From the IMG/VR virus record IMGVR_UViG_3300037258_000590, positions 62,001 through 126,000 of that record: 64,000 nt of DNA; one strand, 5' to 3'. This document shows, in pieces, positions 5,998-35,950 of this stretch (the first letter of the stretch is position 1; the number at the start of each line of letters is the position of its first letter). Made by a program: the position numbers and the translations under genes. Source of the DNA: a virus. Under the pieces are notes generated by a model. It did not search any database, was not told the origin of the DNA, and saw only the letters and a list, made by a program, of their open reading frames with translations.

Positions 5998-6133
5998 CGA
6001 GGGTAACCCCCTTGAGGACGAGATGCGGTCCTCGCGCCCGGAGGCGGTTTCAGGCTAAACGTCCGGGGCGAAGCTGCTGATCCCCGGCTGGATCACCCTG
6101 AAGGACCGGCCGGTCCTGTACGCAGCGCACCAT

Positions 6134-6205
6134 GGGGTTGTAGCTCAGCGGTAGAGCAGCCGGCCCGCAACCGGCAGGTCCGCGGTTCAAATCCGCGTAA
6201 CTCCA
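6134..6205 (+). tRNA. tRNA-Ala(CGC), C33
   Basis: Acceptor GGGGTTG/TAACTCC with G3:U70, anticodon stem GCCGG/CCGGC, loop CCCGCAA, so position 33 is C. T loop TTCAAAT. Confidence 0.88.
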
Positions 6206-6375
6206 CGACCTGGGAGATCCTGGTCCGGATCCAGGCTCCTGCATTACCGTGCCAGCTGGCGATCGGCAGCTGGCGCCCGGAAAGGCCGCCGGGCAGGGAC
6301 GCGAGGATGTAGCTCAACGGGCAGAGCGCCCAGGATCAGGTTTTCCCGGGAAACCAGGAATTGCCGTAAGAATAG

Positions 6376-6449
6376 CGGGGCATGGCGCAGCTTGGCAGCG
6401 CGCTTCGTTCGGGACGAAGAGGCCACAGGTTCAAATCCTGTTGCCCCGA
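6376..6449 (+). tRNA. tRNA-Pro(CGG)
   Basis: Acceptor CGGGGCA/TGCCCCG, anticodon loop TTCGGGA, T loop TTCAAAT, discriminator A with C1-G72 as expected for proline. Confidence 0.92.
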
Positions 6450-6583
6450 CTAGGTACGGCGTGCAGGCAAAGACCTGTTCGCGGCATGTGCCCTTATAGT
6501 GCGGACCCGGCTCATTACCGGGACACCGCGGGCACCCCTTGCTGGAGAGGGAGCTGACTGAAATCCAGTGCCATACCTAAAAA

Positions 6584-6656
6584 CGGGCCGTGGCCTAGTG
6601 GCTATGGCGCCTGCCTGGGGGGCAGGAGGACGCCGGTTCGAGTCCGGCCGGCCCGA
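6584..6656 (+). tRNA. tRNA-Pro(GGG)
   Basis: Acceptor CGGGCCG/CGGCCCG, anticodon stem CCTGC/GCAGG, loop CTGGGGG, T loop TTCGAGT. Confidence 0.9.
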
Positions 6657-6744
6657 CTCTGACGTGTGCCGGCTCAAGGGCAGCGGACATGAAGGGCCTC
6701 CTCGCTCTGCCAGCACACTCCGGCGGGACGAAGCGCAGGAGATA

Positions 6745-6816
6745 CGGGGTGTGGTGTAGGGGTAAGCGTGCCTGGTCTGGAACCAGGAGGGTGAGGTTCG
6801 AGTCCTCGCACCCCGA
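6745..6816 (+). tRNA. tRNA-Pro(TGG), C33
   Basis: Acceptor CGGGGTG/CACCCCG and discriminator A fit proline. Anticodon stem CCTGG/CCAGG, loop TCTGGAA with C at position 33. The D arm is irregular. Confidence 0.82.
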
Positions 6817-6828
6817 CGAAATGCACGC

Positions 6829-6901
6829 GGGTTCCTAGCTGAGATGGATTAGCACCCGGCTGAAAACCAGGAGCAGGAAGGTTCGATACCTTCGGAACCC
6901 A
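6829..6901 (+). tRNA. tRNA-Phe(GAA)
   Basis: Acceptor GGGTTCC/GGAACCC, anticodon loop CTGAAAA, one mismatch in the anticodon stem, T loop TTCGATA. Confidence 0.9.
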
Positions 6902-7087
6902 CAACGGCATGACGCTGGCGGCGGCTATGAAACCGTCGTCGGTGACTGAGCGAGTAGCGCTCCGCCCGGTAAGCTGGCCCTGCCGGCAGGGCTGATCTCA
7001 TGCCGCCCGGGAACGGGCCTGGTCACACCTGCGGTCAGCCTCGCAAAGGCGCTTCAGGTCCCTGGCACCAGGTGGTTCCCGGGGCCT

Positions 7088-7159
7088 GCGGGTGTGGCCT
7101 AGTGGCTCGGGCATCAGCCTTCCAAGCTGACCACGCGAGTTCGATTCTCGCCACCCGCT
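7088..7159 (+). tRNA. tRNA-Gly(TCC)
   Basis: Acceptor GCGGGTG/CACCCGC, anticodon stem TCAGC/GCTGA, loop CTTCCAA, T loop TTCGATT, discriminator T. Confidence 0.92.
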
Positions 7160-7175
7160 CTATGACCGTAAACAT

Positions 7176-7247
7176 GCGCCGCTAACTCAGTGGCAGAGAG
7201 TCCGACTCTTAATCGGAAGGTCCGGGGTTCGATTCCCTGGCGGCGCA
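7176..7247 (+). tRNA. tRNA-Lys(CTT)
   Basis: Acceptor GCGCCGC/GCGGCGC, anticodon stem TCCGA/TCGGA, loop CTCTTAA, T loop TTCGATT. Confidence 0.92.
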
Positions 7248-7250
7248 CGA

Positions 7251-7523
7251 ATGGCGGTGATGACGACGGACCGCACAGAAGAACAGGCCGCTGCCGAAGT
7301 GGCCGCCGCGAACGCAGCCAGCATCCTGATTGGCTGGTCACCATGCCGGGCCACCTGCCCGCACTGCGGCTTGCGGGGAACGGCCGAAGTCCGGCAGTGC
7401 TACCGGGTCCAGCCGCCTGGTTCGTTCTCCCTGGCGGGCGTGCAGGTCAAGTTCCCGGCCCGGCTCGGCTGGGAATTCCGGTGCGGCATCTGCGGCGTAT
7501 CTGGCTCCGCCGCGCCGAAATAA
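7251..7523 (+). CDS. small zinc-ribbon protein
   Basis: A 90-residue protein lying between tRNA-Lys and the next tRNA. It has two CxxC pairs (CPHC at about residue 36 and CGIC at about 80), which predicts a zinc ribbon. The N-terminus is helical and acidic (TTDRTEEQAAAEVAAANAA). Codon third positions are G/C rich as in neighbouring real genes. Confidence 0.65.
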   Translation: MAVMTTDRTEEQAAAEVAAANAASILIGWSPCRATCPHCGLRGTAEVRQCYRVQPPGSFSLAGVQVKFPARLGWEFRCGICGVSGSAAPK

Positions 7524-7528
7524 ACCCT

Positions 7529-7601
7529 GGGCTCGTAGTCCAACTGGCAGAGCAGCGCTTTCAAACGGCGTACAGTGCGGGTTCGAATCCCGCCGGGCCC
7601 A
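7529..7601 (+). tRNA. tRNA with CAA anticodon (Leu), short variable loop
   Basis: Acceptor GGGCTCG/CGGGCCC, anticodon stem GCGCT/GGCGT closed by a T-G pair, loop TTCAAAC, variable loop only ACAGT, T arm GCGGG-TTCGAAT-CCCGC, discriminator A. The anticodon reads leucine UUG codons but the body is class I, unlike normal bacterial tRNA-Leu. Confidence 0.8.
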
Positions 7602-7606
7602 CTCAA

Positions 7607-7679
7607 TGCGGTATGGCGCAACTGGCAGCGCGTCCGGCTCTGACCCGGAAGGCTCCTGGTTCGAATCCAGGTGCCGCAG
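7607..7679 (+). tRNA. tRNA-Gln(CTG)
   Basis: Acceptor TGCGGTA/TGCCGCA, anticodon stem TCCGG/CCGGA, loop CTCTGAC, discriminator G as usual for glutamine. Confidence 0.92.
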
Positions 7680-7703
7680 CTACGCGTCATCTGACGCAAA
7701 CTC

Positions 7704-7772
7704 GCCGCCGCGCGCTGGCCGCGGCCTCGCTTTCGTAAGGCGGGAGGCCCGGTTCGACACCGGGGGGCGGCT
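7704..7772 (+). tRNA. tRNA-Thr(CGT), shortened D arm
   Basis: Acceptor GCCGCC/GGCGGC (7:66 is G-G), anticodon stem TCGCT/GGCGG, loop TTCGTAA, T loop TTCGACA, discriminator T. Only 16 bases separate acceptor and anticodon stems, so the D arm is truncated. Confidence 0.75.
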
Positions 7773-7856
7773 CGATCGTCGACAGCTGCTGTTGCAGGTT
7801 ACAGGCCTAACCGGCAGTAAAAGCCCAGGTCAGCGAAAACGGTTGCCGCCGTGCAT

Positions 7857-7930
7857 GTCCTCGTAGCCCAACGGCAGGAGGCACCAGGTCGAGAATCTGG
7901 ACAGTGCGGGTTCAAATCCCGCCGGGGACA
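7857..7930 (+). tRNA. tRNA with GAG anticodon (Leu), C33, short variable loop
   Basis: Acceptor GTCCTCG/CGGGGAC, anticodon stem CCAGG/TCTGG, loop TCGAGAA with C33, T arm GCGGG-TTCAAAT-CCCGC, discriminator A. Class I body with a leucine anticodon, like the neighbours at 7529 and 8916. Confidence 0.78.
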
Positions 7931-7933
7931 CGC

Positions 7934-8383
7934 TCAGGTCAAGATGGCCAGCAGCATGAGCAGGCACACCGCGGCTGACTCGGCGACCCCGGTGCGGGAA
8001 CCGTCCCTGATGGCCAGGGCCAGCGCTGACCCGGCGGCCAGGGACGCGACGATCAGCACGGCGCCTATTACCGGCAGCCAGCGTGGTGATCCTGGTGCAG
8101 GCAGCGAACCCTGCCGCCTTAGCTCATCTGGCAGAGCAGCGGCCCTGTAAGCCGCGGGTAGCCCGTTCGAACCGGGCAGGCGGCTCTGACGGCCGGTTCC
8201 GGCGCGCGGCGGCACGTACACCGGGACGTCCAGGCCGAACCGGCCGCAAGCCTGGTGCAGGGCCCGGTAGTTTCCGCCGGCCGGCCGCAGGCCCAGCGTC
8301 TGCAGCGCCTCGGCGATAGACCGGCTCTGGCGGACCGCCCGGGTGACGGCCGCGCGGTCGCGCAGGATGCTCTGTACTGGCAT
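7934..8383 (-). CDS. homing-nuclease-type DNA-binding segment plus membrane tail, antisense to tRNA-Thr
   Basis: From the ATG at 8383, the first 50 residues (AVTRAVRQSRSIAEALQTLG, then GGNYRALHQACGRFGLDVP) match the helix-turn-helix motif that accompanies many phage HNH endonucleases. No HNH core follows. The frame then passes through the antisense of the tRNA-Thr at 8113-8185 and ends in a hydrophobic helix (WLPVIGAVLIVASLAAGSAL). The DNA-binding segment looks genuine; the rest may be a chance extension. Confidence 0.4.
   Translation of the reverse strand: MPVQSILRDRAAVTRAVRQSRSIAEALQTLGLRPAGGNYRALHQACGRFGLDVPVYVPPRAGTGRQSRLPGSNGLPAAYRAAALPDELRRQGSLPAPGSPRWLPVIGAVLIVASLAAGSALALAIRDGSRTGVAESAAVCLLMLLAILT
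8113..8185 (+). tRNA. tRNA-Thr(TGT), C33
   Basis: Acceptor GCCGCCT/AGGCGGC, anticodon stem GCGGC/GCCGC, loop CCTGTAA with C33, T loop TTCGAAC, discriminator T. Confidence 0.9.
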
Positions 8384-8419
8384 ACGGCAACGGTACGGCG
8401 GCTGGGCTGCCAGTTCCAG

Positions 8420-8491
8420 TGGGGTGTGGGGTAACCGGCAGCCCGGAGAGTTTTGGTCTCTCTTGTCCAGGTTCGAATCCTGGCACCTCAG
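8420..8491 (+). tRNA. tRNA-Gln(TTG)
   Basis: Acceptor TGGGGTG/CACCTCA, anticodon stem GAGAG/CTCTC, loop TTTTGGT, T arm CCAGG-TTCGAAT-CCTGG, discriminator G. Confidence 0.9.
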
Positions 8492-8605
8492 CAAGGCTGT
8501 CCCAGACACTCAGCGGCAGCCATCCAGTTGCCAGGTAACTGCCCGGTCAGCCGGGCGCTTGACGGTTAATTGTCAGTTAATCGCACTTAATTGCTAGTCA
8601 CGTGT

Positions 8606-8679
8606 GCCTCCGTAGCTCTAGCGGATAGAGCGCCTGCTCGGTACGCAGGAGGTCCCGAGTTCGAATCTCGGTGGAGGCT
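8606..8679 (+). tRNA. tRNA-Thr(GGT), C33
   Basis: Acceptor GCCTCCG/TGGAGGC, anticodon stem CCTGC/GCAGG, loop TCGGTAC with C33, T loop TTCGAAT, discriminator T. Confidence 0.9.
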
Positions 8680-8808
8680 CTGAGCGATGCGCCTCGCTCG
8701 CAAAACCAGGGCGCGGGGTGCGGCTGGTCCTCTCAAAACCAGTTCTTGCCCGCTCTGCGGAGCGGATGTGCGGTGTAAGCCCCGGCCTTGATCCTGCCGG
8801 GCAGCCAT

Positions 8809-8881
8809 GCGGACGTAGCGCAGCTGGTAGCGCGTTACCTTGCCAAGGTAAAGGCCGCGGGTTCGAGACCCGTCGTCCGCT
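8809..8881 (+). tRNA. tRNA-Gly(GCC)
   Basis: Acceptor GCGGACG/CGTCCGC, anticodon stem TTACC/GGTAA, loop TTGCCAA, T loop TTCGAGA, discriminator T. Confidence 0.93.
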
Positions 8882-8915
8882 CGGCCCCGGCCTGGTGAAT
8901 GCAGGCAGGGCTCAT

Positions 8916-8989
8916 GTCCAGGTAGCCCAACGGCAGGAGGCACTGCGCTCAGACCGCAGGATGTGCGGGTTCGAATCCCGCCTTGGACA
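8916..8989 (+). tRNA. tRNA with CAG anticodon (Leu), short variable loop
   Basis: Acceptor GTCCAGG/CTTGGAC, anticodon stem CTGCG/CGCAG, loop CTCAGAC, variable loop about five bases, discriminator A. The D arm is nearly identical to the GAG tRNA at 7857. Confidence 0.82.
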
Positions 8990-9061
8990 CGATGGCGCTG
9001 GAAGGATCACGGCCGCGGGGTCTGCGCGTACCTGGCGGTTCGCCTGCCTTCCCCCATCCTC

Positions 9062-9147
9062 GGAGCATTGGCACAGCGGCAACTGCAGCGCCCTGCTAAG
9101 GCGTACGCCAGGTGACTGGTGCGGAGGTTCGAGTCCTCCATGCTCCG
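9062..9147 (+). tRNA. tRNA-Ser(GCT)
   Basis: Acceptor GGAGCAT/ATGCTCC, loop CTGCTAA, long class II variable arm, T arm GGAGG-TTCGAGT-CCTCC, discriminator G. Confidence 0.9.
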
Positions 9148-9154
9148 CGAACCA

Positions 9155-9239
9155 GGAGGATTCGCCTAGTGGCTTATGGCGCACGCCCGGAAAGCGTGTT
9201 GGGGTAACACCCTCGCAGGTTCAAATCCTGCATCCTCCG
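9155..9239 (+). tRNA. tRNA-Ser(GGA), C33
   Basis: Acceptor GGAGGAT/ATCCTCC, anticodon stem CACGC/GCGTG, loop CCGGAAA with C33, long variable arm, discriminator G. Confidence 0.9.
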
Positions 9240-9626
9240 CTCCCGGCCGGAGGCAAGTAACTATCCGGAGTCTCTTGATTCCAGCCCGTAGTTGGAGCTA
9301 TGTTGGCCTTGGGACGTTGGTGAACACTTGGGCTTCAAACGCAGGGAGCTGTCGTGCTGGTGAAAGCCTGCTACGCGGACCTCGGCCCTGCGTGAGAGGA
9401 ACTGGGGTTCGGCGACACGTGAATGGTCAGTCGGTGACTGGCGCTTGTTGTGGGTCTTGAGGTACCCGTAAGCCGCCGGGGAGCCAGACGGGACCGCGGC
9501 CCCTGAAGGGCAGCATGCGACGCGGAACCAGAGGCACCCAGACAGGAGGCATACCCGCCGTCTTCCCGGCAGCGGGTCACTGCCCAGCCAAAGGAACAGC
9601 AATCCCCGGCGCAGGGTCCTCACCCA
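9240..9626 (+). other. 387-base gap in the tRNA array
   Basis: No tRNA, no convincing ORF on either strand. The sequence is less GC-rich than the surrounding tRNAs and contains several short hairpins, so an unassigned RNA is possible but not supported. Confidence 0.4.
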
Positions 9627-9711
9627 GGAGGATTCGCCTAGTGGCCTATGGCGCCGGCTTTGAATCCCGGTTGGGGTGACACCCTCGCAGGTTCAAATCC
9701 TGCATCCTCCG
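9627..9711 (+). tRNA. tRNA-Ser(TGA)
   Basis: Acceptor GGAGGAT/ATCCTCC, loop TTTGAAT, C-C mismatch closing the anticodon stem, long variable arm, discriminator G. Close copy of the Ser(GGA) gene at 9155. Confidence 0.88.
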
Positions 9712-9724
9712 CTCGCATCACCCA

Positions 9725-9814
9725 GGAGGGGTAAGCCGAGCTGCGGCCTATCGGCACTTGTCCCGAAAACAAGCTGGGAGCAATCCCGTGTGGGTTCGAG
9801 ACCCACCTCCTCCG
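9725..9814 (+). tRNA. tRNA-Ser(CGA), C33
   Basis: Acceptor GGAGGGG/CTCCTCC, anticodon stem CTTGT/ACAAG, loop CCCGAAA with C33, long variable arm, T loop TTCGAGA, discriminator G. Confidence 0.9.
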
Positions 9815-9951
9815 CGTAATATCCTGATTTCTGCGGGGCGTCCTATAGGCAACGCCGCTCAGACGGTAACAGCGCGGTCGTGCGACCCCCTGAGCAGGCC
9901 AGCCAGCAGGCCGCAGCGAGACTGGCCCCCGCGGTGTACTCGCTTCATCCT

Positions 9952-10025
9952 GGGCCGGCAGCACAGTCGGTTCGTGCAGCTGCCTGATACGCAGACGGGC
10001 GCTGGTTCAATTCCAGCCCGGCCCA
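9952..10025 (+). tRNA. tRNA-Ile(GAT)
   Basis: Acceptor GGGCCGG/CCGGCCC, loop CTGATAC, T arm GCTGG-TTCAATT-CCAGC, discriminator A. Confidence 0.88.
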
Positions 10026-10031
10026 CTACAC

Positions 10032-10105
10032 GGCGGTATAGCTCAGTCCGGCAGAGCGATCCCCCCATAAGGGAGAGGCCGGTGGATCGAAGCCACCTAC
10101 CGCTA
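10032..10105 (+). tRNA. tRNA-Met or Ile2 (CAT), C33
   Basis: Acceptor GGCGGTA/TACCGCT, anticodon stem ATCCC/GGGAG with an end mismatch, loop CCCATAA with C33, T loop ATCGAAG. Whether the CAT anticodon is methionine or lysidine-modified isoleucine cannot be told. Confidence 0.82.
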
Positions 10106-10115
10106 CGCAGTTCCC

Positions 10116-10190
10116 GGGCCAGTGGCCAATATGGTGACGGCGCCCGTCTTATATACGGGAAATGTGCAGGTTCAACCCCTGCCTGGCCCA
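10116..10190 (+). tRNA. tRNA-Ile(TAT)
   Basis: Acceptor GGGCCAG/CTGGCCC, anticodon stem CCCGT/ACGGG, loop CTTATAT, T loop TTCAACC. Confidence 0.9.
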
Positions 10191-10241
10191 CGAAAGGAAT
10201 TTCCGTGAACGCTAAACGACCCCTGCGAATATGACTCGCAG

Positions 10242-10314
10242 GAGCCGGTAGCTCAGCGGTATGAGCGGCGGGCCTTTAACCCGCGCGACCTGGGTTCGAA
10301 TCCCAGCCGGCCCA
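10242..10314 (+). tRNA. tRNA-Lys(TTT), C33
   Basis: Acceptor GAGCCGG/CCGGCCC with an A-C mismatch at 2:71, anticodon stem GCGGG/CCCGC, loop CCTTTAA with C33, T arm CTGGG-TTCGAAT-CCCAG. Confidence 0.88.
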
Positions 10315-10321
10315 CGATCAC

Positions 10322-10395
10322 GCGCTGGTAGCTCAGCTGGACAGAGCGACCGTCTTCTAAGCGGCAGGCCCAGGGTTCGAATCCCTGCCGGCGCA
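10322..10395 (+). tRNA. tRNA-Arg(TCT)
   Basis: Acceptor GCGCTGG/CCGGCGC, loop CTTCTAA, D loop with the arginine-type A20, T loop TTCGAAT. Confidence 0.9.
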
Positions 10396-10482
10396 CATGA
10401 ACGGCCGCGCTAAAAGACGGCCCGGTGGAACGGGGCACGTGACCCTGGACTCACAGCGAGCGTCCGTCAAGCGCGAGCACAC

Positions 10483-10555
10483 GCTCCGTTGGAGTAACGG
10501 ACATCTCACCTGGCCCTCAACCAGGAGACTGCCGGTTCGATCCCGGCACGGAGCA
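10483..10555 (+). tRNA. tRNA-Glu(CTC), C33
   Basis: Acceptor GCTCCGT/ACGGAGC, anticodon stem CCTGG/CCAGG, loop CCCTCAA with C33, T loop TTCGATC. Confidence 0.9.
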
Positions 10556-10566
10556 CGCAGTAACCA

Positions 10567-10639
10567 GGCCCCATGGAGCTACTGGCTAAGCCACCGGTCT
10601 TTCACACCGGAGAAGACGGGTCGGAACCGTCTGGGGTCA
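10567..10639 (+). tRNA. tRNA-Glu(TTC)
   Basis: Acceptor GGCCCCA/TGGGGTC, anticodon stem CCGGT/ACCGG, loop CTTTCAC, T loop GTCGGAA. Confidence 0.88.
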
Positions 10640-10640
10640 C

Positions 10641-10714
10641 TGCGGGGTGCAGCAGTTAGGTAGCTGACTGGGCTCATAATCCAGAAGACGCGGGTTCAAA
10701 TCCCGCCCCCGCTA
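10641..10714 (+). tRNA. initiator-like tRNA-fMet(CAT)
   Basis: Loop CTCATAA. Position 1:72 is a T-T mismatch above six G/C-rich pairs, and the D stem has A11:U24; both are hallmarks of bacterial initiator tRNA. The anticodon stem carries a G29-G30-G31 run paired with C, C and U. T loop TTCAAAT, discriminator A. Confidence 0.85.
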
Positions 10715-10718
10715 CTAT

Positions 10719-10789
10719 TCTGGTATCCGTTAACGGTAAACGAGCAGACTGTTAATCTGTCCCTCCTGGTTCGAATCCAGGTACCAGAG
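10719..10789 (+). tRNA. tRNA-Asn(GTT)
   Basis: Acceptor TCTGGTA/TACCAGA, anticodon stem GCAGA/TCTGT, loop CTGTTAA, T loop TTCGAAT, discriminator G. Confidence 0.92.
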
Positions 10790-10865
10790 CGAGGTGCCGC
10801 AAGCCGCTGCACGAAACCGCCACGTGGCCTCATACGGCGGGGAATTGCCCTTTCGCAGCACCCTA

Positions 10866-10939
10866 GGTGACGTAGCACAACCGGCCAGTGCCCCACCCTG
10901 TCACGGTGGATTGTGCGGGTTCGAATCCCGTCGTCATCG
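10866..10939 (+). tRNA. tRNA-Asp(GTC)
   Basis: Acceptor GGTGACG/CGTCATC, anticodon stem CCACC/GGTGG, loop CTGTCAC, T loop TTCGAAT, discriminator G. Confidence 0.92.
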
Positions 10940-11277
10940 CCAGCAATCAGGCCGGGTGCAGCCTGCCGCGGATCGTCGCGTGCGCACCCTGACAGCGGGT
11001 GCCGGCGGCGGCAGAGCGGTCTTACGGCTGCACCCGGCCCTCACCAGGTAAGAGCCGCTCACGGCCCGGACCTGACACACGAACGCAAGACTCAGGGCGG
11101 CTGGTTACGCGATCGCACCCTGACATCCGGAACTGGCCGGAACGATCAACCTGAGTGACCGGCCCGAGACGGCGGCGCCATTCCCAGGGATTAAGCGGGA
11201 CAGCTTTCCCGGACCGCGTAAAGCACAGACCGCATTCCGGCCCCAGCAGGCATTGCACACGCCGGAAGCTTACATAC
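10940..11277 (+). other. spacer in tRNA array, no supported gene
   Basis: A 338-base stretch between tRNA-Asp and tRNA-Val. A minus-strand frame at 11022-11258 (starting MQCLLGPECG) is open but has no supporting features. No tRNA is seen. Confidence 0.4.
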
Positions 11278-11349
11278 GGGCGGCTGGCGCAGCGGCAGCG
11301 CGCTACCCCGACACGGTAGAGGCCACTGGTTCAAATCCAGTGCCGCCCA
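11278..11349 (+). tRNA. tRNA-Val(GAC), C33
   Basis: Acceptor GGGCGGC/GCCGCCC, anticodon stem CTACC/GGTAG, loop CCGACAC with C33, T loop TTCAAAT. Confidence 0.9.
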
Positions 11350-11361
11350 CGTAGTATCCAT

Positions 11362-11434
11362 GCGCCCGCAGCACGACGGATCGTGCAGACGGCTACGAAC
11401 CGGAAGGGTGGGAGTTCGAATCTCTCCGGGCGCG
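11362..11434 (+). tRNA. tRNA-Arg(ACG)
   Basis: Acceptor GCGCCCG/CGGGCGC, loop CTACGAA, only three clear pairs in the anticodon stem, D loop with A20, discriminator G. Would need A-to-I editing by the host TadA enzyme. Confidence 0.85.
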
Positions 11435-11445
11435 CGTAATACCAA

Positions 11446-11517
11446 GGGCGGTTGGCGCAGCGGCAGCGCGGCTCGTTCACACCGAGTAGGCCGCAGGTTC
11501 GATCCCTGCACCGCCCA
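11446..11517 (+). tRNA. tRNA-Val(CAC)
   Basis: Acceptor GGGCGGT/ACCGCCC, anticodon stem GCTCG/CGAGT, loop TTCACAC, T loop TTCGATC. Confidence 0.92.
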
Positions 11518-11520
11518 CTA

Positions 11521-11588
11521 GCTGACGAGAAGCAGGATTGCGGTCGCGACGGCGACCAGGGGTCCGAGTCCCCGTTCTCGTCAGCCCA
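11521..11588 (+). ncRNA. tRNA-like RNA with 11-bp closing stem
   Basis: GCTGACGAGAA (11521-11531) pairs perfectly with TTCTCGTCAGC (11575-11585), then CCA follows. Inside are a 3-bp hairpin, a 6-bp hairpin GGTCGC/GCGACC with a 4-base loop, and a T-arm-like hairpin GGGG-TCCGAGT-CCCC. There is no 7-base anticodon loop, so it is not a decoding tRNA. It lies exactly between tRNA-Val and tRNA-His, inside the array. Confidence 0.6.
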
Positions 11589-11591
11589 CAT

Positions 11592-11665
11592 GGCGGCCGA
11601 AGCCAAACAGGCTGAGGCACTGGACTGTGAATCCAGGTAAGCGGGTTCAAGTCCCGCCGGTCGCC
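11592..11665 (+). tRNA. tRNA-His(GTG)
   Basis: G at -1 faces C73 as required for histidine identity. Acceptor GCGGCCG/CGGTCGC, anticodon stem CTGGA/TCCAG, loop CTGTGAA, T loop TTCAAGT. Confidence 0.93.
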
Positions 11666-11669
11666 CCGC

Positions 11670-11750
11670 GGGTCGTTGGCAGAGCGGACGATTGCGCCTG
11701 GCTGTAAACCAGGTTCTCCGGACACGGTGGTTCAAATCCATCACGGCCCA
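11670..11750 (+). tRNA. tRNA-Tyr(GTA)
   Basis: Acceptor GGGTCGT/ACGGCCC, anticodon stem CCTGG/CCAGG, loop CTGTAAA, class II variable arm, T loop TTCAAAT. Confidence 0.92.
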
Positions 11751-11764
11751 CGTAACCCGGTGGC

Positions 11765-12007
11765 ATGATGGCTGTCGTGGATATCACGATCATGTACCGC
11801 AAAGACGCCGACCACCCGCAGCACGGCGGCAGCGGCGGTGAGGAGTGGCGCATCGAAGCCGTAGGCATCGAAGGCTATGACGGCGACCGGTGCGTTCAGG
11901 CTGTGCTGGATGCGGGCGCGCTGATGAAATCCGCCGCGTACGGAAATGCGCGGTTGATCGTGGAAGGGCTGCGCGGCGCCAGCCCGGATGCTGTGGCAGG
12001 TGCATGA
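11765..12007 (+). CDS. small hypothetical protein
   Basis: An 80-residue acidic protein (MMAVVDITIMYRKDADHPQH) placed inside the tRNA array between tRNA-Tyr and tRNA-Arg(CCG). The N-terminus reads as beta strands, the C-terminus as helices. It is the first of three consecutive plus-strand genes here. No family is recognised. Confidence 0.6.
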   Translation: MMAVVDITIMYRKDADHPQHGGSGGEEWRIEAVGIEGYDGDRCVQAVLDAGALMKSAAYGNARLIVEGLRGASPDAVAGA

Positions 12008-12095
12008 ATGCGCACCGGCCTGGGACTGCTGGCAAGTCTGCAGCCGGAAGCCCAGGCCCTGCCGTTAGCACAGCACGTATGGCAGGATGACCCGC

Positions 12096-12845
12096 ATGGA
12101 ACTGACGCAGCTGGCCCCGCCGGGCCACGGGCTTATCTCCAAGCTGACCGCTGACGATGGCGATTTCCGGGTTACCTGGGATCCCGGCAACCCGGAGGAG
12201 ACCGAGAACGCCCGGCAGGCTTTCGCTGACCTGCGCCGCAGCGGGTACGCAATCCACCGGGTGGAAGGCGGGCGCCGGGAGGTGATCCGTGAGTTCGATC
12301 CGGCGGCCGGAGCCATGCAGCTCGTGGCGCACCGGCCGAACCGCGGCGGCTTATCATGCCCGCGGGAGAGTTCCGGTACTGCCGTGATCCGGAAGCTGCG
12401 TGGCTGGCCAGCGGCAACAGCATGCCCGCAAGTACGGACCCGGCAACCAGGTTCTTCACGTGGTCTGCTGCTGGTTCCGGTGTCATCTGCACGACCGGGA
12501 ATACCGCATCCGGTACGGTTATCGTTTACAGCCCGGACGGGAGTGCAGGCCTGTGGTACGGCACGTTCCCTTCCGGCCCTGGCTCAGGACTACCGCAGGC
12601 ACAGATTGAGCAGCTGGTCGCGGAACACCAGCGCGAGGCGGAAAAAGCTGCCGCGCGCCGCCAGGTCGCTGATGCCAGGGCGCACCAGTTGCTGCTGTCC
12701 CTGCTCGATGAAATCCAGGCAGCGGATTACGCGCAGCATGGCTGGTTCGAGCTGCGCGGCTCGGCAGGCGGCTGGTGGCGCATCCGCGGAGCCGGCCAGG
12801 CGGGGAACGTTGATGAACTGGAAGCTTCAGGCGGCGAGCGGATAG
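12096..12845 (+). CDS. conserved small phage protein, frame extended by overlap
   Basis: The first 92 codons (MELTQLAPPGHGLISKLTAD through HRPNRGG) look like a known actinophage small-protein family with a conserved GHGLI and a DPAA segment near the end. After that the frame stays open for another 155 codons but overlaps the next gene in another frame and reads as low-quality sequence. The functional protein probably ends near 12370; a lost stop codon or small indel is likely. A start at 12087 is also possible. Confidence 0.5.
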   Translation: MELTQLAPPGHGLISKLTADDGDFRVTWDPGNPEETENARQAFADLRRSGYAIHRVEGGRREVIREFDPAAGAMQLVAHRPNRGGLSCPRESSGTAVIRKLRGWPAATACPQVRTRQPGSSRGLLLVPVSSARPGIPHPVRLSFTARTGVQACGTARSLPALAQDYRRHRLSSWSRNTSARRKKLPRAARSLMPGRTSCCCPCSMKSRQRITRSMAGSSCAARQAAGGASAEPARRGTLMNWKLQAASG

Positions 12846-12985
12846 CGTCCTGGTGCTGTCATCCGCCAGGCGCCCTGCCGGACGCTGACGCGTACATCGC
12901 CCAGATGCTGCACCTGGCTGCTGACGAGCCTGGGTTCCGGGCCGCCGGCAACAGGACCGGGCGGCGCCAGCCTGCCGCAGCGTGA
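12356..12985 (+). CDS. hypothetical protein with central coiled region
   Basis: A 209-residue protein starting MPAGEFRYCR. Residues 1-70 look like beta structure (TGNTASGTVIVYSPDG), residues 80-115 form a charged helix (QIEQLVAEHQREAEKAAARR), and the C-terminal part is Trp-rich (GWWRI) with helices. No catalytic motif is seen. It ends just before tRNA-Arg(CCG). Confidence 0.6.
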   Translation: MPAGEFRYCRDPEAAWLASGNSMPASTDPATRFFTWSAAGSGVICTTGNTASGTVIVYSPDGSAGLWYGTFPSGPGSGLPQAQIEQLVAEHQREAEKAAARRQVADARAHQLLLSLLDEIQAADYAQHGWFELRGSAGGWWRIRGAGQAGNVDELEASGGERIASWCCHPPGALPDADAYIAQMLHLAADEPGFRAAGNRTGRRQPAAA

Positions 12986-12989
12986 TCTA

Positions 12990-13061
12990 GCGCCTATCGT
13001 CCAACGGACAGGGCTCTGGCCCCCGAAGCCAGCGATGCAGGTTCGAATCCTGCTGGGCGCG
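12990..13061 (+). tRNA. tRNA-Arg(CCG), C33
   Basis: Acceptor GCGCCTA/TGGGCGC, anticodon stem CTGGC/GCCAG, loop CCCCGAA with C33, T loop TTCGAAT, discriminator G. Confidence 0.9.
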
Positions 13062-13134
13062 CTGGTACCCCGTGAAGCCTCGTGCTAGCTGCGGGCTCCG
13101 CGTGAACGCCCCGCTGCTGAACGGGGTACCTCCT

Positions 13135-13207
13135 GGCGGCATGGCTGAACGGACAGGCCCGCGTCTGCAAAACGTGCGCTAACCCGGTTCGACTCCGGGT
13201 GCCGCTT
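13135..13207 (+). tRNA. tRNA-Cys(GCA)
   Basis: Acceptor GGCGGCA/TGCCGCT, anticodon stem CGCGT/ACGTG, loop CTGCAAA, T loop TTCGACT, discriminator T as expected for cysteine. Confidence 0.92.
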
Positions 13208-13211
13208 CTGA

Positions 13212-13284
13212 TGGCTCGTAGTCCAGCGGACGAGGGCACCGGCCTCCTAAGCCGGGGGCGCGGGTTCGATTCCCGCCGGGCCAG
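13212..13284 (+). tRNA. tRNA-Arg(CCT)
   Basis: Acceptor TGGCTCG/CGGGCCA, anticodon stem CCGGC/GCCGG, loop CTCCTAA, T loop TTCGATT, discriminator G. Last gene of the array. Confidence 0.92.
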
Positions 13285-13322
13285 CAATTCCAGGGCGCTC
13301 ACGCTATGATCGTGGTTCCGTA

Positions 13323-13844: not shown

Positions 13845-13897
13845 TATCCGTGACGCCCGCTCCTCCTGCCAGCACAGCAAGCGAGAGGAGCATTTTC

Positions 13898-15577
13898 ATG
13901 TCCAGGTACAACACCCCGGCAGCCAAGGCTGCTGTGCGCAGCCCGGTCACGTCAGAAGCCACCCCGAGCGGCCAGACGTACGAAGGCGCACCCGGGTACG
14001 CGCGTGACGCTCGCGGCGAGCTTTTCCTTTTGTCGGTCGCCTACATGGGCGCGGATGGCGCATTCTACGAAACCAGCACCCAGCGCGATACCCGGTTCGC
14101 GAACCTGGTCCGCCAGGTCGCTGTCGAAGACCCGGCATGGATGGCGGGTTTCGTCCCGTGGCTGCGCAACGGCGCGCACATGCGCACCGCGTCGGTGGTC
14201 GCCGCGGCCGAGGCGCTGCAGGCCATGCTCGCCGCCGGGCTGCCGGGCGGCCGGGCGCTCATCTCCGCAGCGCTCCAGCGGGCTGATGAGCCGGGTGAGC
14301 TGCTGGCCTACTGGCACGGCCGGTACGGGCGCAATGAGCCCAAGCCGCTCAAGCGCGGCATCGCCGACGCGATCGTCCGGTTGTACTCGGAGTTCAGCCT
14401 GCTTCGCTATGACACGGACTCGCACGGCTACCGGTTCGGCGACGTAATCGAACGCGTTCACGTCACCGGGGAGCACCCGGAGGTCAAGGGCACCTGGCGG
14501 GGTGCGCTGTACGGGCACGCCATCGACCGGCGCCACGGCCGGGACAACCCGGTGCCAGGCGAGCTGCGGATGGTCGGCGCGAACGCCATCCTGCGGGTGC
14601 GGGCCGCGAGAGACCCATCCGTCCTGCTTAACACAGGCGCGCTGCGGGCTGCCGGCATGACATGGGAAGACACCTTGTCGCTGGCCGGGAGCCGGGTGGA
14701 CAAGGCGAAGCTGTGGTCCGCGCTGATCCCGTCGATGAGCTTCATGGCGTGCTTGCGCAATCTGCGCAACTTCGATGAGGCCGGCGTCCCGGACGAGGTG
14801 ACGGCAACCGTGGCGGCCCGGCTGAGCGATCCGGAGCAGGTCGCGAAGTCCCGGCAGTTCCCGTTCCGGTTCCTGGCCGCGTACCGGGCGGCGCCGTCGC
14901 TACGCTGGGCCTACCCGCTGGAGCAAGCACTCAACTTGTCGCTGGCGAACGTGCCAGCATTGCCGGGCCGCACGCTGGTCCTGGTCGACCGGTCCCTGTC
15001 CATGTGGAGCGCGAAGATGAGCACCCATTCGGACATGCCGTGGGCTGATGCTGCGGCCATCTTCGGCGCGGCCGTGGCTAGCCGTGCCGCGCACGCCGAC
15101 CTGGCGGAATTTTCCAGCCGCTCCGCGCGGATCGAATTCAGCCGCGCCGAATCCGTGCTGCGGATCATCGGGCGGTTTCACGCCGGCGACAGTCCAGGCA
15201 GCATCATCGGGACCGGGACAGACATCCCGCGTGCCGTTCGCGATAACCTGCGCCCGGATCACGCTCGGGTGGTGATCGTCACCGATGAGCAGAGCGAGCC
15301 AGGCATCCTGCCGTCCAACATCTACGGCGGCTACAGCAGCGACGCGATGCCGCCTACCCGGATCGATGATCTCATTCCGGCCTCTGTGCCGGTGTACCTG
15401 TGGAACATCGGCGGCTACAAGCGCGGTGTTCTCCCTTCAGGAAGCGGTAGCCGGCACACGTTCGGCGGCCTGACCGATTCCGCCTTCGAGATGATCAGCT
15501 TGCTCGAAGCACGACGGGACGCGCACTGGCCGTGGGCACCGGCGCTGCTCGCGGATCACAGCCGCGGCAGCGTCTGA
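13898..15577 (+). CDS. rsr: Ro60/TROVE-domain RNA-binding protein (Rsr-like)
   Basis: A 559-residue protein. The N-terminal 350 residues form the helical TROVE ring that binds misfolded RNA 3' ends in its hole and Y RNA on its outside. The C-terminal vWA domain has an intact metal-binding motif DRSLS (in LVLVDRSLSMWS) and TDEQSE. The ATG at 13898 is preceded by GAGAGGAG. The frame is open from 13850, but the SD site decides for 13898. Four Y-RNA-like genes lie immediately upstream. In bacteria Ro60 with Y RNA scaffolds nucleases for RNA decay and stress survival; phage copies are known in mycobacteriophages. Confidence 0.95.
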   Translation: MSRYNTPAAKAAVRSPVTSEATPSGQTYEGAPGYARDARGELFLLSVAYMGADGAFYETSTQRDTRFANLVRQVAVEDPAWMAGFVPWLRNGAHMRTASVVAAAEALQAMLAAGLPGGRALISAALQRADEPGELLAYWHGRYGRNEPKPLKRGIADAIVRLYSEFSLLRYDTDSHGYRFGDVIERVHVTGEHPEVKGTWRGALYGHAIDRRHGRDNPVPGELRMVGANAILRVRAARDPSVLLNTGALRAAGMTWEDTLSLAGSRVDKAKLWSALIPSMSFMACLRNLRNFDEAGVPDEVTATVAARLSDPEQVAKSRQFPFRFLAAYRAAPSLRWAYPLEQALNLSLANVPALPGRTLVLVDRSLSMWSAKMSTHSDMPWADAAAIFGAAVASRAAHADLAEFSSRSARIEFSRAESVLRIIGRFHAGDSPGSIIGTGTDIPRAVRDNLRPDHARVVIVTDEQSEPGILPSNIYGGYSSDAMPPTRIDDLIPASVPVYLWNIGGYKRGVLPSGSGSRHTFGGLTDSAFEMISLLEARRDAHWPWAPALLADHSRGSV

Positions 15578-31888: not shown

Positions 31889-32009
31889 CCCCTTCCGGCG
31901 GTTTTCCTCAGTTGCGGGCGGCGCGCCCTCAGCGGACGCCGTAGCCAGGAGGGCCGGATGCCGGCGGCTCCCTGGCCAGCTGGCACACCTCCTCGCTCAT
32001 CTTCTGGCG

Positions 32010-33497
32010 GTCGCATCCCGCACCCAGCTCAGGGCCTGCTGCCAATTGCGGCCTAAGCCCGGACCGGAAGCGGGAATGAATGAGGCCGTCGCACCCCCGC
32101 ACCCAGCTCAGGGCCTGCTGCCAGGCGCGTACCTGTGGCCGTGGTCGCACCTCATGCCCAGCTCAGGCCCTGCTGCCAGACCCGTTCGGGCTCGGCTACT
32201 TCGTCGGGGGTCGCACCTCATACCCAGCTCAGGCTCCGTTGCCAGGCTGTGCAGCTCACTGTCGCACCTCATACCCAGCTCAGGCTCCGTTGCCAGTGAC
32301 GGCGTGCCCGCGCGGCGGTCATCTGGGCAACCCCGTCGCACCTCATACCCAGCTCAGGCTCCGTTGCCAGCCTCCCACTGGAAGGCGCGCCTACGGCTAC
32401 AATGCAGTCGCACCTAATGCCCAGCTCAGGCTCCGTTGCCAGGCCAGGCGGATACTTCTGCGCAAGGTTCCAGCATGTCTGGGGGTCGCACCTCATACCC
32501 AGCTCAGGCTCCGTTGCCAGTCGCAACCAGTCGGCAGCGGTATACCTGCCGTTCTGCAGTCGCACCGCATGCTCAGCTCAGGCTCCGTTGCCAGCAGAAG
32601 ACGACCCGAATCTTAAGGTTGCGCTCCTGGTCGCACCTCATGCCCAGCTCAGGCTCCGTTGCCAGCTCCGGACGCCCAGGCCTTAATCCCAGGCGTCCGG
32701 AGCGTCGCACCTCATGCCCAGCTCAGGCTCCGTTGCCAGCCCGGGTCATGTCCCACCTCATGCCCAGCTCAGGCTCCGTTGCCAGCCTCAGCACCCTTGA
32801 GCGCATCGCGGCGGATCCGCCGTCGCACCTCATGCCCAGCTCAGGCTCCGTTGCCAGCCGCCCCGGCCAGTCCCACGTCGCCTTGGCGTCGCATCTCATG
32901 CCCAGCTCAGGCTCGGTTGCCAGACGTATTTCTTCCCGCCTAGGGCGACTGCTCGCAGCAGTCGCACCTCATGCCCAGCTCAGGCTCCGTTGCCAGGATC
33001 TCGACCATCTCGCCGGCGAGCACGCGACTCGTGTCGCACCTCATGCCCAGCTCAGGCTCCGTTGCCAGCCCCCGGCCGGACTTTGGCGAGGCTAAGCAGT
33101 CGCACCTCATGCCCAGCTCAGGCTCCGTTGCCAGGACCAGGGCATTTTCGCATGCCCGGGGGAGACACTAGTCGCACCTCATGCCCAGCTCAGGCCCCGT
33201 TGCCAGTGTGGCGCCTGTAGGTTGCCTGACATGGAGATGCGCGTCGCACCTCATGCCCAGCTCAGGCTCCGTTGCCAGCGAAGGCCAGCGCGTGACCGTG
33301 CTGACCACGGAGGTAGTCGCACCTCATGCCCAGCTCAGGCTCCGTTGCCAGCCGGACCCGTGGCCCCCCGCCATCCCGCCGGCGCCGGTCGCACCTCATG
33401 CCCAGCTCAGGCTCCGTTGCCAGCGGCGATATCGCGGACCTGGCTGATTTCAGGCTGACCAGTCGCACCTCATGCCCAGCTCAGGCTCCGTTGCCAG
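32010..33497 (-). CRISPR. CRISPR array, 22 repeats of 36 bp
   Basis: Twenty-two repeats and 21 unique spacers. In minus-strand sense the repeat starts CTGGCAACGGAGCCTGAG and ends GGCATGAGGTGCGAC. Spacer lengths from left to right are 42, 19, 30, 15, 38, 36, 42, 38, 35, 38, 10, 36, 30, 37, 36, 30, 36, 36, 37, 36 and 38. The first three repeats on the left (32010, 32088, 32144) diverge most, so the left is probably the trailer end and transcription probably runs leftwards, the same strand as the nuclease gene. The last repeat supplies the stop codon of that gene. Confidence 0.93.
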
Positions 33498-35133
33498 GGC
33501 TCCGCTTTCGCGTCTGCCGCGACCTGCGGCGTTCCGGCGGCTTGCGAGCACCTACCCGGCCATAGGCTCCCGGGATAAGGTTCTCAGTCAGCCCGGCGTA
33601 ACCCCTCTCCTGACCTGGGTGCGAGCGCTCCCCGGAGGGAGACTCCGCGCCTGGGTGCTCGCCTGGCGATGTCACTATTGAGTTGGGTAGCGAGTTGACG
33701 GGCTGCTGGCTGACGCCGAGGCATGTCTCCCGTCCTGCCACGGCCTGCGCTGCCGCGGTATACCGATCCAGTATATTCCGGGCCGCGACCACATCGGCAT
33801 GGCCTTCGAGCCCGCAGCGCACGCACCGGAACGTGTCCCGGTCCGGGCGGTTTGCCGCGTCGACATGCCCGCAGCGCGGGCATGTCTGCGAGGTGTACGC
33901 GGCCGGGACGGCAGCCACCTGCGTCTTGTACGCGGTGAACTGCATCACCTGATACCAGTTCCTGGCCAGGATCGCGCGGTTGAGCCCGGCTTTAGCCCGG
34001 ACCTGCGAGCCTGGCTGTTCCGCCGTGCCCCTGGCTGAGCTGGTCATCGCGGACACGTCAAGATCTTCCATGACCACCATCGCGTACCGGTCGGCAAGAG
34101 CGCGAGAAGCCAGGTGCGCTCCCGCAGTGCGCTGGCGGACCTGGCGCTGGCTGAGCTTGAGGTACGCCAGCTTGTCCCGGGCGTACCGGGCCGAATGCTT
34201 CCAGCAGCCGCAATCGTGGGCGGGATGACCCGGCGGTGGGCAGTAATGCCGGATCAGCTTGCTCCGGCCGCGCACGGTAACCCACACGTCGTGCCGGCAC
34301 GGGTTCAGGCGGCGCTTGCGGCTCAGGGTACGCTGCAGCCGGTCCTTGCGCTGCTGCTGTCCCGCAGACAAGACGGGCGTGTGATAAGCAGCCCCGTCTG
34401 CGGTGGCGATAGTGACGGCTACGCCGCGGTCGACCCCGGTAATGCCGCCAGCCGCGGGTTGCCGTACCTGGGCGGTGTCGTACTGCAGCAGCACCCAGTA
34501 ACGGCCCAGCGCATCAGCGCGCAGCACCGCGAACCTGACCAGGGTGTCGGCGGGCAGTTCCCGGTGATACCGGATACGGATCACGCCGATGACACCCGGC
34601 ACGCGGAATTCGGCGGTTGCCGGGCGGCTCCCGGTCGCTTTCCCGGTCACGATCACGGTCTTGCCCAGCGGACGCGGGCCGTTCTCGCCCTTCACCTGCC
34701 AGTACAGCGAACCGCCCCGGTGCACCGAACGAAAACGCGGCGGGCTGGACGGGCACCGCTGGCCGGGTGCGTGCGGATTCCGGTTCCACCCGGCCAGCGC
34801 TTTGAGATGCCTGGTCCAGGACCCGGACAGCTGCCGCAAAGCGCCGTACAGGAAAACCGCCGGCACGTCCGCGATCAGCCGCAAGCCGCCCTGGTACGGG
34901 AACTCCACGCCAGCCTGACGGGCAGCCGTTACCGCGTAGGAAAGCCGCTGCTTGTACGTCTCTACCGGAACATGATGCCGGTACCGGTCGAGCTGTGACG
35001 CGGCAGCCTCGTTGTAGAACCAGGTGACGCCGGCGTGGCAGAACCTGAACGCGGTTTCCTGCTCCGCGGTAAGCATGGCGGCGTAGGCCTGAGCGCGGAT
35101 ATGCCGGCCAGCATCTTTGCCAGGCGGGGTCAC
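33481..35133 (-). CDS. TnpB/Cas12-like RNA-guided nuclease (type V-U-like)
   Basis: 550 residues from GTG at 35133. A helical N-terminal OrfB-type domain (residues 10-130) is followed by a tripartite RuvC: Asp235 in GITGVDRGVAV, Glu356 in AMVVMEDLDV, Asp447 in GHADVVAARN. A four-Cys zinc finger (C418, C421, C437, C440) lies between RuvC II and III. All catalytic residues are present, so cleavage is plausible. A Cys/His insertion (CRHDVWV to CGCWKH, residues 279-312) sits between RuvC I and II, and a 95-residue basic tail follows RuvC III. The gene abuts a 22-repeat CRISPR array and lacks TnpA, cas1 or cas2 nearby. It is longer than typical TnpB (about 400 aa). Confidence 0.88.
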   Translation of the reverse strand: MTPPGKDAGRHIRAQAYAAMLTAEQETAFRFCHAGVTWFYNEAAASQLDRYRHHVPVETYKQRLSYAVTAARQAGVEFPYQGGLRLIADVPAVFLYGALRQLSGSWTRHLKALAGWNRNPHAPGQRCPSSPPRFRSVHRGGSLYWQVKGENGPRPLGKTVIVTGKATGSRPATAEFRVPGVIGVIRIRYHRELPADTLVRFAVLRADALGRYWVLLQYDTAQVRQPAAGGITGVDRGVAVTIATADGAAYHTPVLSAGQQQRKDRLQRTLSRKRRLNPCRHDVWVTVRGRSKLIRHYCPPPGHPAHDCGCWKHSARYARDKLAYLKLSQRQVRQRTAGAHLASRALADRYAMVVMEDLDVSAMTSSARGTAEQPGSQVRAKAGLNRAILARNWYQVMQFTAYKTQVAAVPAAYTSQTCPRCGHVDAANRPDRDTFRCVRCGLEGHADVVAARNILDRYTAAAQAVAGRETCLGVSQQPVNSLPNSIVTSPGEHPGAESPSGERSHPGQERGYAGLTENLIPGAYGRVGARKPPERRRSRQTRKRSPGNGA

Positions 35134-35354
35134 CGGCCCGCACCTGCTGCCAGGCAGCGCTCTACCTCCGCCAGGCTGGCACCTGTCTGCTCATCGCCGG
35201 CCAGCAGCCTGCCCTCCGCGTTGCGCAGGTACCAGCGCCCGTAGCCGAGCGCGCGAGGGTCACGCCGCCGGAGCTTAGCCAGGCGCAGCCCCTGCCGGGC
35301 GGCAGCGCGCCGGGAACGGTTCTCCCGGGTCATCAGCGTGTAGTCGCGAGTCAC
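35130..35354 (-). CDS. small basic protein coupled to the nuclease
   Basis: 74 residues; MTRENRSRR at residue 9 is an alternative start. Sequence RDPRALGYGRWYLRNAEGRL then GASLAEVERCLAA resembles small proteins found near actinobacterial mobile elements. Its stop overlaps the nuclease GTG start (GTGA), so the two are translationally coupled and may work together. Confidence 0.6.
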   Translation of the reverse strand: MTRDYTLMTRENRSRRAAARQGLRLAKLRRRDPRALGYGRWYLRNAEGRLLAGDEQTGASLAEVERCLAAGAGR

Positions 35355-35383
35355 GCCAGCTGTAACGACAGCTGTAGCGGGAG

Positions 35384-35698
35384 TTATTCCCTTGCGTCTC
35401 CTGCGCGCATCCCGGCGGGCGGGTTCGCGTGCGGCGCCAGCTTCGCCATTTCCGTGGTCATCTGCTGCCGGATCTCCTGCTCCGCGAGATGCGGCGTACC
35501 ACCGTAGATCATGGCGCGGATAATGCGGAGCCGCCGGGCAGCGTCCACGGCTTCCGCTTCAAGCACGTCTTCCAGGTGCTCGCACCACTGGCGCAGCAGC
35601 GTGACCTGGATCTGCAGGACGGCATCAGCCGGAGCTGACAGGCCGAGCCGGCGCAGGTACTGCTCAAGGATGTCCCTGGTCGCGCTCACCGCCGGCAC
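35384..35698 (-). CDS. helical hypothetical protein
   Basis: 104 residues (MPAVSATRDILEQYLRRLGL), nearly all helix, with a conserved-looking core (CEHLEDVLEAEAVDAARRLR). Ends PHANPPAGMRAGDARE; the segment PHANPPAGMR recurs in the neighbouring gene 35717. Probably a head-region accessory protein. Confidence 0.6.
   Translation of the reverse strand: MPAVSATRDILEQYLRRLGLSAPADAVLQIQVTLLRQWCEHLEDVLEAEAVDAARRLRIIRAMIYGGTPHLAEQEIRQQMTTEMAKLAPHANPPAGMRAGDARE
35406..35436. repeat. 31-bp direct repeat, copy 1
   Basis: Starts CGCATCCCGGCGGGCGGGTT. Identical except for one base to copy 2 at 35721-35751. Encodes the shared C-terminal tail of two different minus-strand proteins. Confidence 0.85.
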
Positions 35699-35716
35699 CG
35701 CCCTCCTGCTGTCAGG

Positions 35717-35950
35717 CTAGCGCATCCCGGCGGGCAGGTTCGCGTGCGGCGAGCACCTGATGCACTGCAGGTTCGAGCTGTCGGCAGAGTCGGTGATGAC
35801 CAGGGTGCCGGGCATCGCCATGTGCCCGCAGGGCAGCCGCTTGAGCAGGACCCCGCCGTCACGGCAGGCCATGCAGACGTGCCGCGTGTCGGCCAGCACG
35901 ATCCGGTCCGCTGACGGCGGGATAGGCCGCCCGCAGGAGCCGCACGGCAT
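35717..35950 (-). CDS. zinc-ribbon protein
   Basis: 77 residues with CGSC, CMAC, CGH and CIRC, so two zinc sites (MPCGSCGRPIPPSADRIVLA). C-terminus PHANLPAGMR is shared with the gene at 35384. Function unknown; lies between the head-region gene at 36001 and the nuclease locus. Confidence 0.65.
   Translation of the reverse strand: MPCGSCGRPIPPSADRIVLADTRHVCMACRDGGVLLKRLPCGHMAMPGTLVITDSADSSNLQCIRCSPHANLPAGMR
35721..35751. repeat. 31-bp direct repeat, copy 2
   Basis: Starts CGCATCCCGGCGGGCAGGTT. One mismatch from copy 1 at 35406-35436. Both copies lie at the 3' ends of genes, so they may be recombination footprints. Confidence 0.85.

What the first reader, a model, noticed from the sequence alone, without database searches (positions are those of the whole stretch)
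32010..35133. Phage-borne mini type V-like CRISPR locus: 22-repeat array beside a TnpB/Cas12-like nuclease
Seen: 22 near-identical 36-bp repeats with 21 unique spacers, and a 550-residue protein with intact RuvC Asp235, Glu356, Asp447 and a four-Cys zinc finger, coupled to a 74-residue basic protein. The stop codon of the nuclease is formed by the last repeat. Known: Cas12 arose from TnpB, some phages carry mini Cas12 systems. Inference: a compact RNA-guided effector that uses the array and targets competing phages, plasmids or host loci. Missing Cas1/Cas2 means spacer acquisition depends on something else.
Basis: partly seen in the sequence, partly recalled or inferred. Interest (0 to 1): 0.95.

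Follow-up and report, generated by a model that had tools for sequence, protein, structure and literature searches.

The report
Phage-borne TnpB-derived mini CRISPR system
A large virus of bacteria carries a tiny CRISPR system made of one DNA-cutting protein descended from a transposon enzyme and, directly behind it, an array of 21 guide sequences; a related virus carries the same unit with entirely different guides, which points to a new virus-held branch of CRISPR.

Summary
In detail: 22 repeats of 36 nt with 21 spacers lie directly downstream of, and in the same direction as, a 550-aa TnpB/Cas12-type protein with intact RuvC Asp235/Glu356/Asp447 and a four-Cys zinc ribbon. The decisive new evidence is a sister phage (three IMG/VR contigs, identical over this 13.4-kb region). 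It carries an ortholog (about 40% identical, C-terminal tail included) with its own 12-repeat array: related repeats, different spacers, another genomic site, and the effector's stop codon again inside the first repeat. Effector and array are therefore a conserved unit. It is cargo: related phages have an empty site.

The effector is not Cas12n (V-N/V-U4), the nearest-looking named subtype; that grouping is rejected (p-AU 0.001 and 0.008). It groups with actinobacterial TnpBs, and the best solved fold is TnpB.

Most likely this is an independent TnpB-to-CRISPR recruitment whose guide scaffold lies in the effector's disordered 3' end. The 74-aa protein is probably incidental. No cas1 exists in either phage record and no protospacer was found, so targets, PAM and spacer acquisition are unknown. 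I rate it a new variant of a known kind (type V-U); about 50 such recruitments are already reported.

The parts
33481..35133 (-). Effector, 550 aa, TnpB/Cas12-like; RuvC D235, E356, D447; zinc ribbon C418/C421/C437/C440; residues 472-544 predicted disordered
32010..33497 (-). CRISPR array, 22 repeats of 36 nt (two distal copies degenerate), 21 spacers; leader end at 33497
33462..33497 (-). First (leader-proximal) repeat; it contains the effector's stop codon
   Evidence: same in sister phage
33498..33720 (-). Candidate guide scaffold (tracrRNA/omegaRNA-like) inside the effector's 3' coding end, conserved at DNA level in the sister phage
   Evidence: not supported by folding energy
33507..33529 (-). 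Conserved scaffold motif CCGCAGGTCRCGRCRGRCGNRAA; elsewhere in IMG/VR found only in the three sister contigs
33654..33663 (-). 5' arm GGCGAGCACC of a long-range stem with 33543-33552
33543..33552 (-). 3' arm GGTGCTCGCA of the same stem
33609..33624 (-). Weak anti-repeat candidate TCGCACCCAGGTCAGG (not significant genome-wide, not clearly kept in the sister phage)
35130..35354 (-). 74-aa basic ORF overlapping the effector start by 4 nt; probably not part of the system
31894..35731 (-). Cargo interval absent from related phages (flanks adjacent in L302); holds the 104-aa and 74-aa ORFs, effector, scaffold and array

Best explanation
A phage-carried, single-effector type V-U CRISPR system that arose from a TnpB nuclease separately from Cas12n. 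A minus-strand transcript runs through the effector gene into the array. The 3' end of the effector message folds into the guide scaffold (the former omegaRNA), which pairs with repeats, in cis with the first one or in trans with the others, and loads spacer guides. The effector then binds and cuts matching DNA with its intact RuvC site, to the phage's benefit against rival mobile elements or host loci. Shown: the array, intact catalytic residues, a conserved effector-array unit in two phages with different spacers and sites, cargo status, TnpB ancestry. Inferred: transcription, scaffold role, cutting, benefit and targets.
For: Array and effector as described. Sister-phage ortholog, about 40% identical over residues 64-549, with its own array, related repeat, different spacers, stop codon in the first repeat, other genomic site. 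Empty site in relatives. Best fold match TnpB, TM 0.81 by target length. Tail disordered as protein yet conserved as DNA, third codon positions 46-52% identical against 29% in shuffles; scaffold motif found only in the sister contigs. Genuine Cas12n loci have the same gene-then-array layout, and Cas12n keeps its tracrRNA inside its mRNA (PMC11641405).
Against: No protospacer found, so no PAM and no sign of use. Scaffold fold energies equal shuffles; the anti-repeat candidate is not significant. No promoter or terminator signal. Only two distinct members known.
Confidence: 0.8

Rival explanations
1. It is a divergent, phage-borne member of Cas12n (subtype V-N, formerly V-U4, C2c9).
For: Cas12u4 is the best PADLOC profile (E 8e-40); same layout of array directly behind the effector; similar size and tracrRNA place (PMC11641405).
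Against: Genuine members score 547-651 bits to that profile and many plain TnpB-like genes 200-420, the window protein 135; nearer to TnpBs than to Cas12n by phmmer; one clade with Cas12n rejected, p-AU 0.001 and 0.008.
Confidence: 0.07
2. An ordinary TnpB gene that happens to lie beside an unrelated array, which the phage uses as an orphan array with host Cas proteins.
For: Effector is TnpB by fold and tree; no cas1 in the phage; viral mini-arrays that use host machinery exist (PMC11656645).
Against: Effector and array recur together in the sister phage at another site with a co-diverged repeat; the stop codon lies in the first repeat in both; repeat absent from 395 Actinomycetes genomes at up to 3 mismatches; no TnpA family among the cargo proteins tested.
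Confidence: 0.1
3. The effector works by binding without cutting, as Cas12m does, and silences rival genes.
For: Cas12m is carried by plasmids and some prophages and acts by binding (PMC11013384; PMC11656645); Cas12m structures match the model moderately, TM 0.42-0.54 by target length.
Against: All three catalytic acids and the zinc ribbon are kept in both phages and across TnpB relatives.
Confidence: 0.1
4. A decaying relic: array and effector were acquired from a host and are no longer used.
For: Three short spacers and degenerate distal repeats; no targets found.
Against: The ORF is intact with all catalytic residues at about 40% identity to its ortholog; proximal repeats are identical; tail DNA conserved.
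Confidence: 0.1

Closest known systems
Cas12n (subtype V-N, V-U4, C2c9)
   Same: Size; RuvC and TNB architecture; array directly behind the effector; guide scaffold located in or at the end of the effector gene
   Different: Separate place in the tree (p-AU 0.001, 0.008); far lower profile score
TnpB of IS605/IS607 elements (actinobacterial branch)
   Same: Closest in sequence (up to 150 bits), tree and fold; scaffold RNA overlapping the 3' end of the gene is the known TnpB arrangement (own knowledge)
   Different: Followed by a CRISPR array instead of a single element end; no TnpA found beside it
TranC (LaTranC), TnpB-CRISPR intermediates
   Same: The idea of TnpB lineages feeding on arrays; LaTranC structures match the model (TM 0.54 by target length)
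   Different: Weak sequence match (E 0.0074); no TranC paper was held, so lineage identity could not be tested; description of TranC is from memory
Virus-borne V-U effectors beside arrays (landfill phages, PMC12607003)
   Same: Phage-encoded compact type V-like nucleases next to arrays, including V-U4-like and TnpB-like ones
Cas12j/CasPhi and CasLambda
   Same: Phage-encoded, compact, single effector
   Different: About 700-800 aa and weaker sequence and fold matches

Membership tests
Type V CRISPR-Cas (candidate, V-U) | Single RuvC-type effector with intact catalytic residues | tested here: met
Type V CRISPR-Cas (candidate, V-U) | CRISPR array linked to the effector | tested here: met
Type V CRISPR-Cas (candidate, V-U) | Linkage conserved in a relative with different spacers | tested here: met
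Type V CRISPR-Cas (candidate, V-U) | Effector uses RNA from the array as guide | not testable with these tools
   needs RNA sequencing and interference assay
Type V CRISPR-Cas (candidate, V-U) | Spacers match mobile elements | tested here: inconclusive
   no match above background
Type V with adaptation module | cas1 in the genome | tested here: not met
   with ringing controls; the records may be incomplete
Cas12n (V-N, V-U4) | Effector falls in the Cas12n clade | tested here: not met
Cas12n (V-N, V-U4) | tracrRNA inside the effector mRNA | tested here: inconclusive
   tail DNA conserved but no energetic or anti-repeat support
Cas12n (V-N, V-U4) | 5'-AAN PAM | not testable with these tools
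   no protospacers
IS605/IS607 TnpB element | TnpB-type sequence and fold | tested here: met
IS605/IS607 TnpB element | Partner transposase TnpA beside it | tested here: not met
   none among cargo proteins tested; many TnpB copies also lack TnpA, so this is weak
Cas12m (V-M) | RuvC nuclease inactivated | tested here: not met
   D235, E356, D447 kept; Cas12u1 profile only E 3e-11
TranC | Membership in a described TranC clade | not tested
   no reference set at hand; one weak PDB match

The most novel reading that the evidence does not exclude
A type V lineage that lives in phages: a TnpB turned its scaffold end into a repeat array without any adaptation genes of its own, and the unit then moved between sites in this phage family while its spacers were wholly replaced.
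Probability: 0.3. Interest if true: 0.8.

Novelty: new variant of a known kind. Interest (0 to 1): 0.62.

Why it matters
TnpB-to-CRISPR recruitment has been inferred about 50 times (PMC12669027). Here the same unit can be compared in two related phages, at different sites, with different spacers and about 40% protein identity, with empty sites in relatives. That makes three open questions testable: how a TnpB scaffold RNA becomes an array-fed guide, how phages refill arrays without adaptation genes, and what such arrays target. It may also offer a compact nuclease of roughly 470 folded residues.

Tried and rejected
Single-protein scans of IMG/VR and GTDB contigs found nothing; the ortholog surfaced only when the whole contigs of capsid relatives were searched. 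A repeat-pattern scan of IMG/VR gave one chance hit without an array. The first AF2 model, from 5 sequences, was poor and was discarded. Spacer sp03 resembles a glmU motif in about ten actinomycete genomes, but the best match (30 of 37) is in another gene and the rest are 27-29 of 37: one chance resemblance to a conserved gene, seen many times. A 20-nt match of sp19 in more than 70 mycobacteriophages has E 8 and is chance level. Duplex-energy scans for an anti-repeat are swamped by high GC. Filing it as Cas12n was my first reading and was dropped. The 'arrays' of L075 are short tandem repeats. Rfam gave nothing. Promoter and terminator scans were empty. A test of one clade with the L060 effector did not finish.

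Full report
Setting. The window is bases 62001-126000 of a 210,383-bp virus record. It holds portal, terminase and capsid genes and 39 tRNA genes, so it is a large tailed phage. The host is not known. High GC, actinobacterial TnpB kin and Streptomyces phages among the better capsid matches (about 32% identity) make an actinomycete likely (inference).

The array. Twenty repeats match the 36-nt consensus with at most three mismatches, and two degenerate copies close the far end. Most spacers are 30-42 nt; three are 10, 15 and 20 nt, which looks like internal deletion. Mismatches rise with distance from the effector, the usual sign of a leader at the effector side, so the crRNA sense is the minus strand: CTGGCAACGGAGCCTGAGCTGGGCATGAGGTGCGAC.

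The effector. The 550-aa protein matches the Cas12f1-like TNB domain, guided_TnpB and, among defence profiles, Cas12u4 first. Across 110 relatives E356, D447, C418, C437 and C440 are invariant, and D235 and C421 are at least 90% conserved. AlphaFold2 with that alignment gave pLDDT 79 and pTM 0.74, with residues 472-544 below 50. Foldseek puts TnpB first (8h1j, TM 0.81 by target length; 8iaz 0.79), then Cas12f (about 0.57) and LaTranC (0.54).

Not Cas12n. Genuine Cas12u4 members in Actinomycetes score 547-651 bits to that profile and many plain TnpB-like genes 200-420; the window protein scores 135. By phmmer it is nearer to TnpBs (123-150 bits for the best 60) than to Cas12n (44-73). Holding it together with seven Cas12n proteins is rejected (p-AU 0.001; 0.008 with its ortholog added). 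With the ortholog included, the pair (support 100) sits in a 33-row clade (SH-aLRT 99) of mainly actinobacterial TnpBs. Without the ortholog the lone long branch attached elsewhere, so the exact attachment is uncertain; the exclusion from Cas12n is firmer.

The unit is conserved. Eighty contigs carry a capsid 77-94% identical. None shows effector or array in the stretch around the capsid, and in L302 the bases that match window 35732 and 31893 are adjacent, so the 3.8-kb interval is cargo. A search of the whole contigs of 18 of these relatives found an ortholog in two, 43% identical over residues 64-549, and a pattern scan added a third contig. The three are identical over the 13.4 kb compared, so they count as one phage. 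Directly behind the 594-aa ortholog lie 12 repeats GTGGCAACACTGCCGGAGCCGGGTGAGTGAGGCGAC with 11 spacers, two of them the same. In both phages the first repeat forms the effector's stop codon. The sites differ: the gene before the ortholog corresponds to one near 80 kb of this phage, whereas the window effector lies at 95-97 kb. Forty-nine further contigs, many of them short, added none beyond the third one. No close member turned up in 395 Actinomycetes genomes at a strict threshold, a negative without a positive control. Neither phage record has Cas1, while 9 of 14 control genomes rang.

A scaffold RNA in the gene's tail. Between the zinc ribbon and the array the protein is predicted disordered, yet the DNA is conserved between the two phages, with blocks such as GCGCTCGCA, GGTGCTCGCA and CCGCAGGTCRCGRC. 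Third codon positions there are 46-52% identical against 29% in shuffles; in the RuvC part they are 46% against 36%, although the protein is better conserved there. A 9-bp stem is kept, and an IMG/VR scan for the scaffold motif returned only the three sister contigs. Against this, fold energies equal those of shuffles, the anti-repeat candidate is not significant, and two sequences cannot prove covariation. Genuine Cas12n loci show the same gene-then-array layout.

The 74-aa ORF. Homologues in sister phages lie far from any effector: in G411 at 103.8 kb against 37.8-39.2 kb for the effector, and in two phages where no effector was found. It is probably not part of the system.

Targets. The spacers gave no match above background in 50,697 phage records, 72,556 plasmids, 395 Actinomycetes genomes, about 30 sister contigs or the rest of the phage itself; one 20-nt core was scanned in IMG/VR without a hit. 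The sister phage's spacers gave none in phages or sister contigs. The repeat is absent from 395 Actinomycetes genomes at up to three mismatches, which speaks against a borrowed host array in the lineages sampled.

Literature. About 50 independent TnpB-CRISPR associations are inferred and many more expected (PMC12669027). Phage V-U effectors beside arrays are reported (PMC12607003). Cas12n carries its tracrRNA within its mRNA (PMC11641405). Two TnpB/Cas12 survey papers cited there were not held, so identity with one of their unnamed branches cannot be excluded.

Verdict. A real, conserved, phage-borne type V-U variant, of TnpB origin separate from Cas12n. That it works as an RNA-guided effector is likely (0.8). 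What it targets and how it gains spacers remain open.

Noticed in passing
L060:5452-7041 (IMGVR_UViG_3300007151_000001): Another phage contig in which a 451-aa TnpB-like gene ends directly before a 4-repeat array; its effector groups with Caldilineaceae TnpBs, so it looks like a further separate recruitment. A second TnpB-like gene lies at 10952-12652.
   Followed up: partly
L060:6808-7041 and L200 (Cas12n locus) array: The repeats of L060 and of a genuine Cas12n locus share the stretch CACGCGCACGAGGGCG although the effectors fall in different clades.
   Followed up: no
window 35405-35436 and 35720-35751: A 32-bp direct repeat (97% identical) lies at the right edge of the cargo and inside the 104-aa ORF, possibly a trace of how the interval was inserted.
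   Followed up: no
L167:1-245 and L177:10222-10383 (both ends of the 210-kb record): Both ends of the record consist of the same 24-nt tandem repeat, so the record probably breaks inside one repeat tract and may be close to a whole genome.
   Followed up: partly
window 5540-13285: 39 tRNA genes in one cluster, followed by a 575-aa protein (13850-15577) that matches the PHROG 'RNA-binding protein' phrog_850.
   Followed up: no
window 32666-32703 and 33135-33170: Two spacers (sp12, sp05) contain strong inverted repeats, as if taken from hairpin or terminator sequences.
   Followed up: no
L237:7230 and L275:7606-8000: A two-copy 31-nt repeat and a 27-nt repeat array lie close behind TnpB-like genes in two other viral contigs.
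   Followed up: no
L387:6287-6430: The sister phage's array holds the same spacer twice in a row, a sign of change by recombination and not only by acquisition.
   Followed up: no
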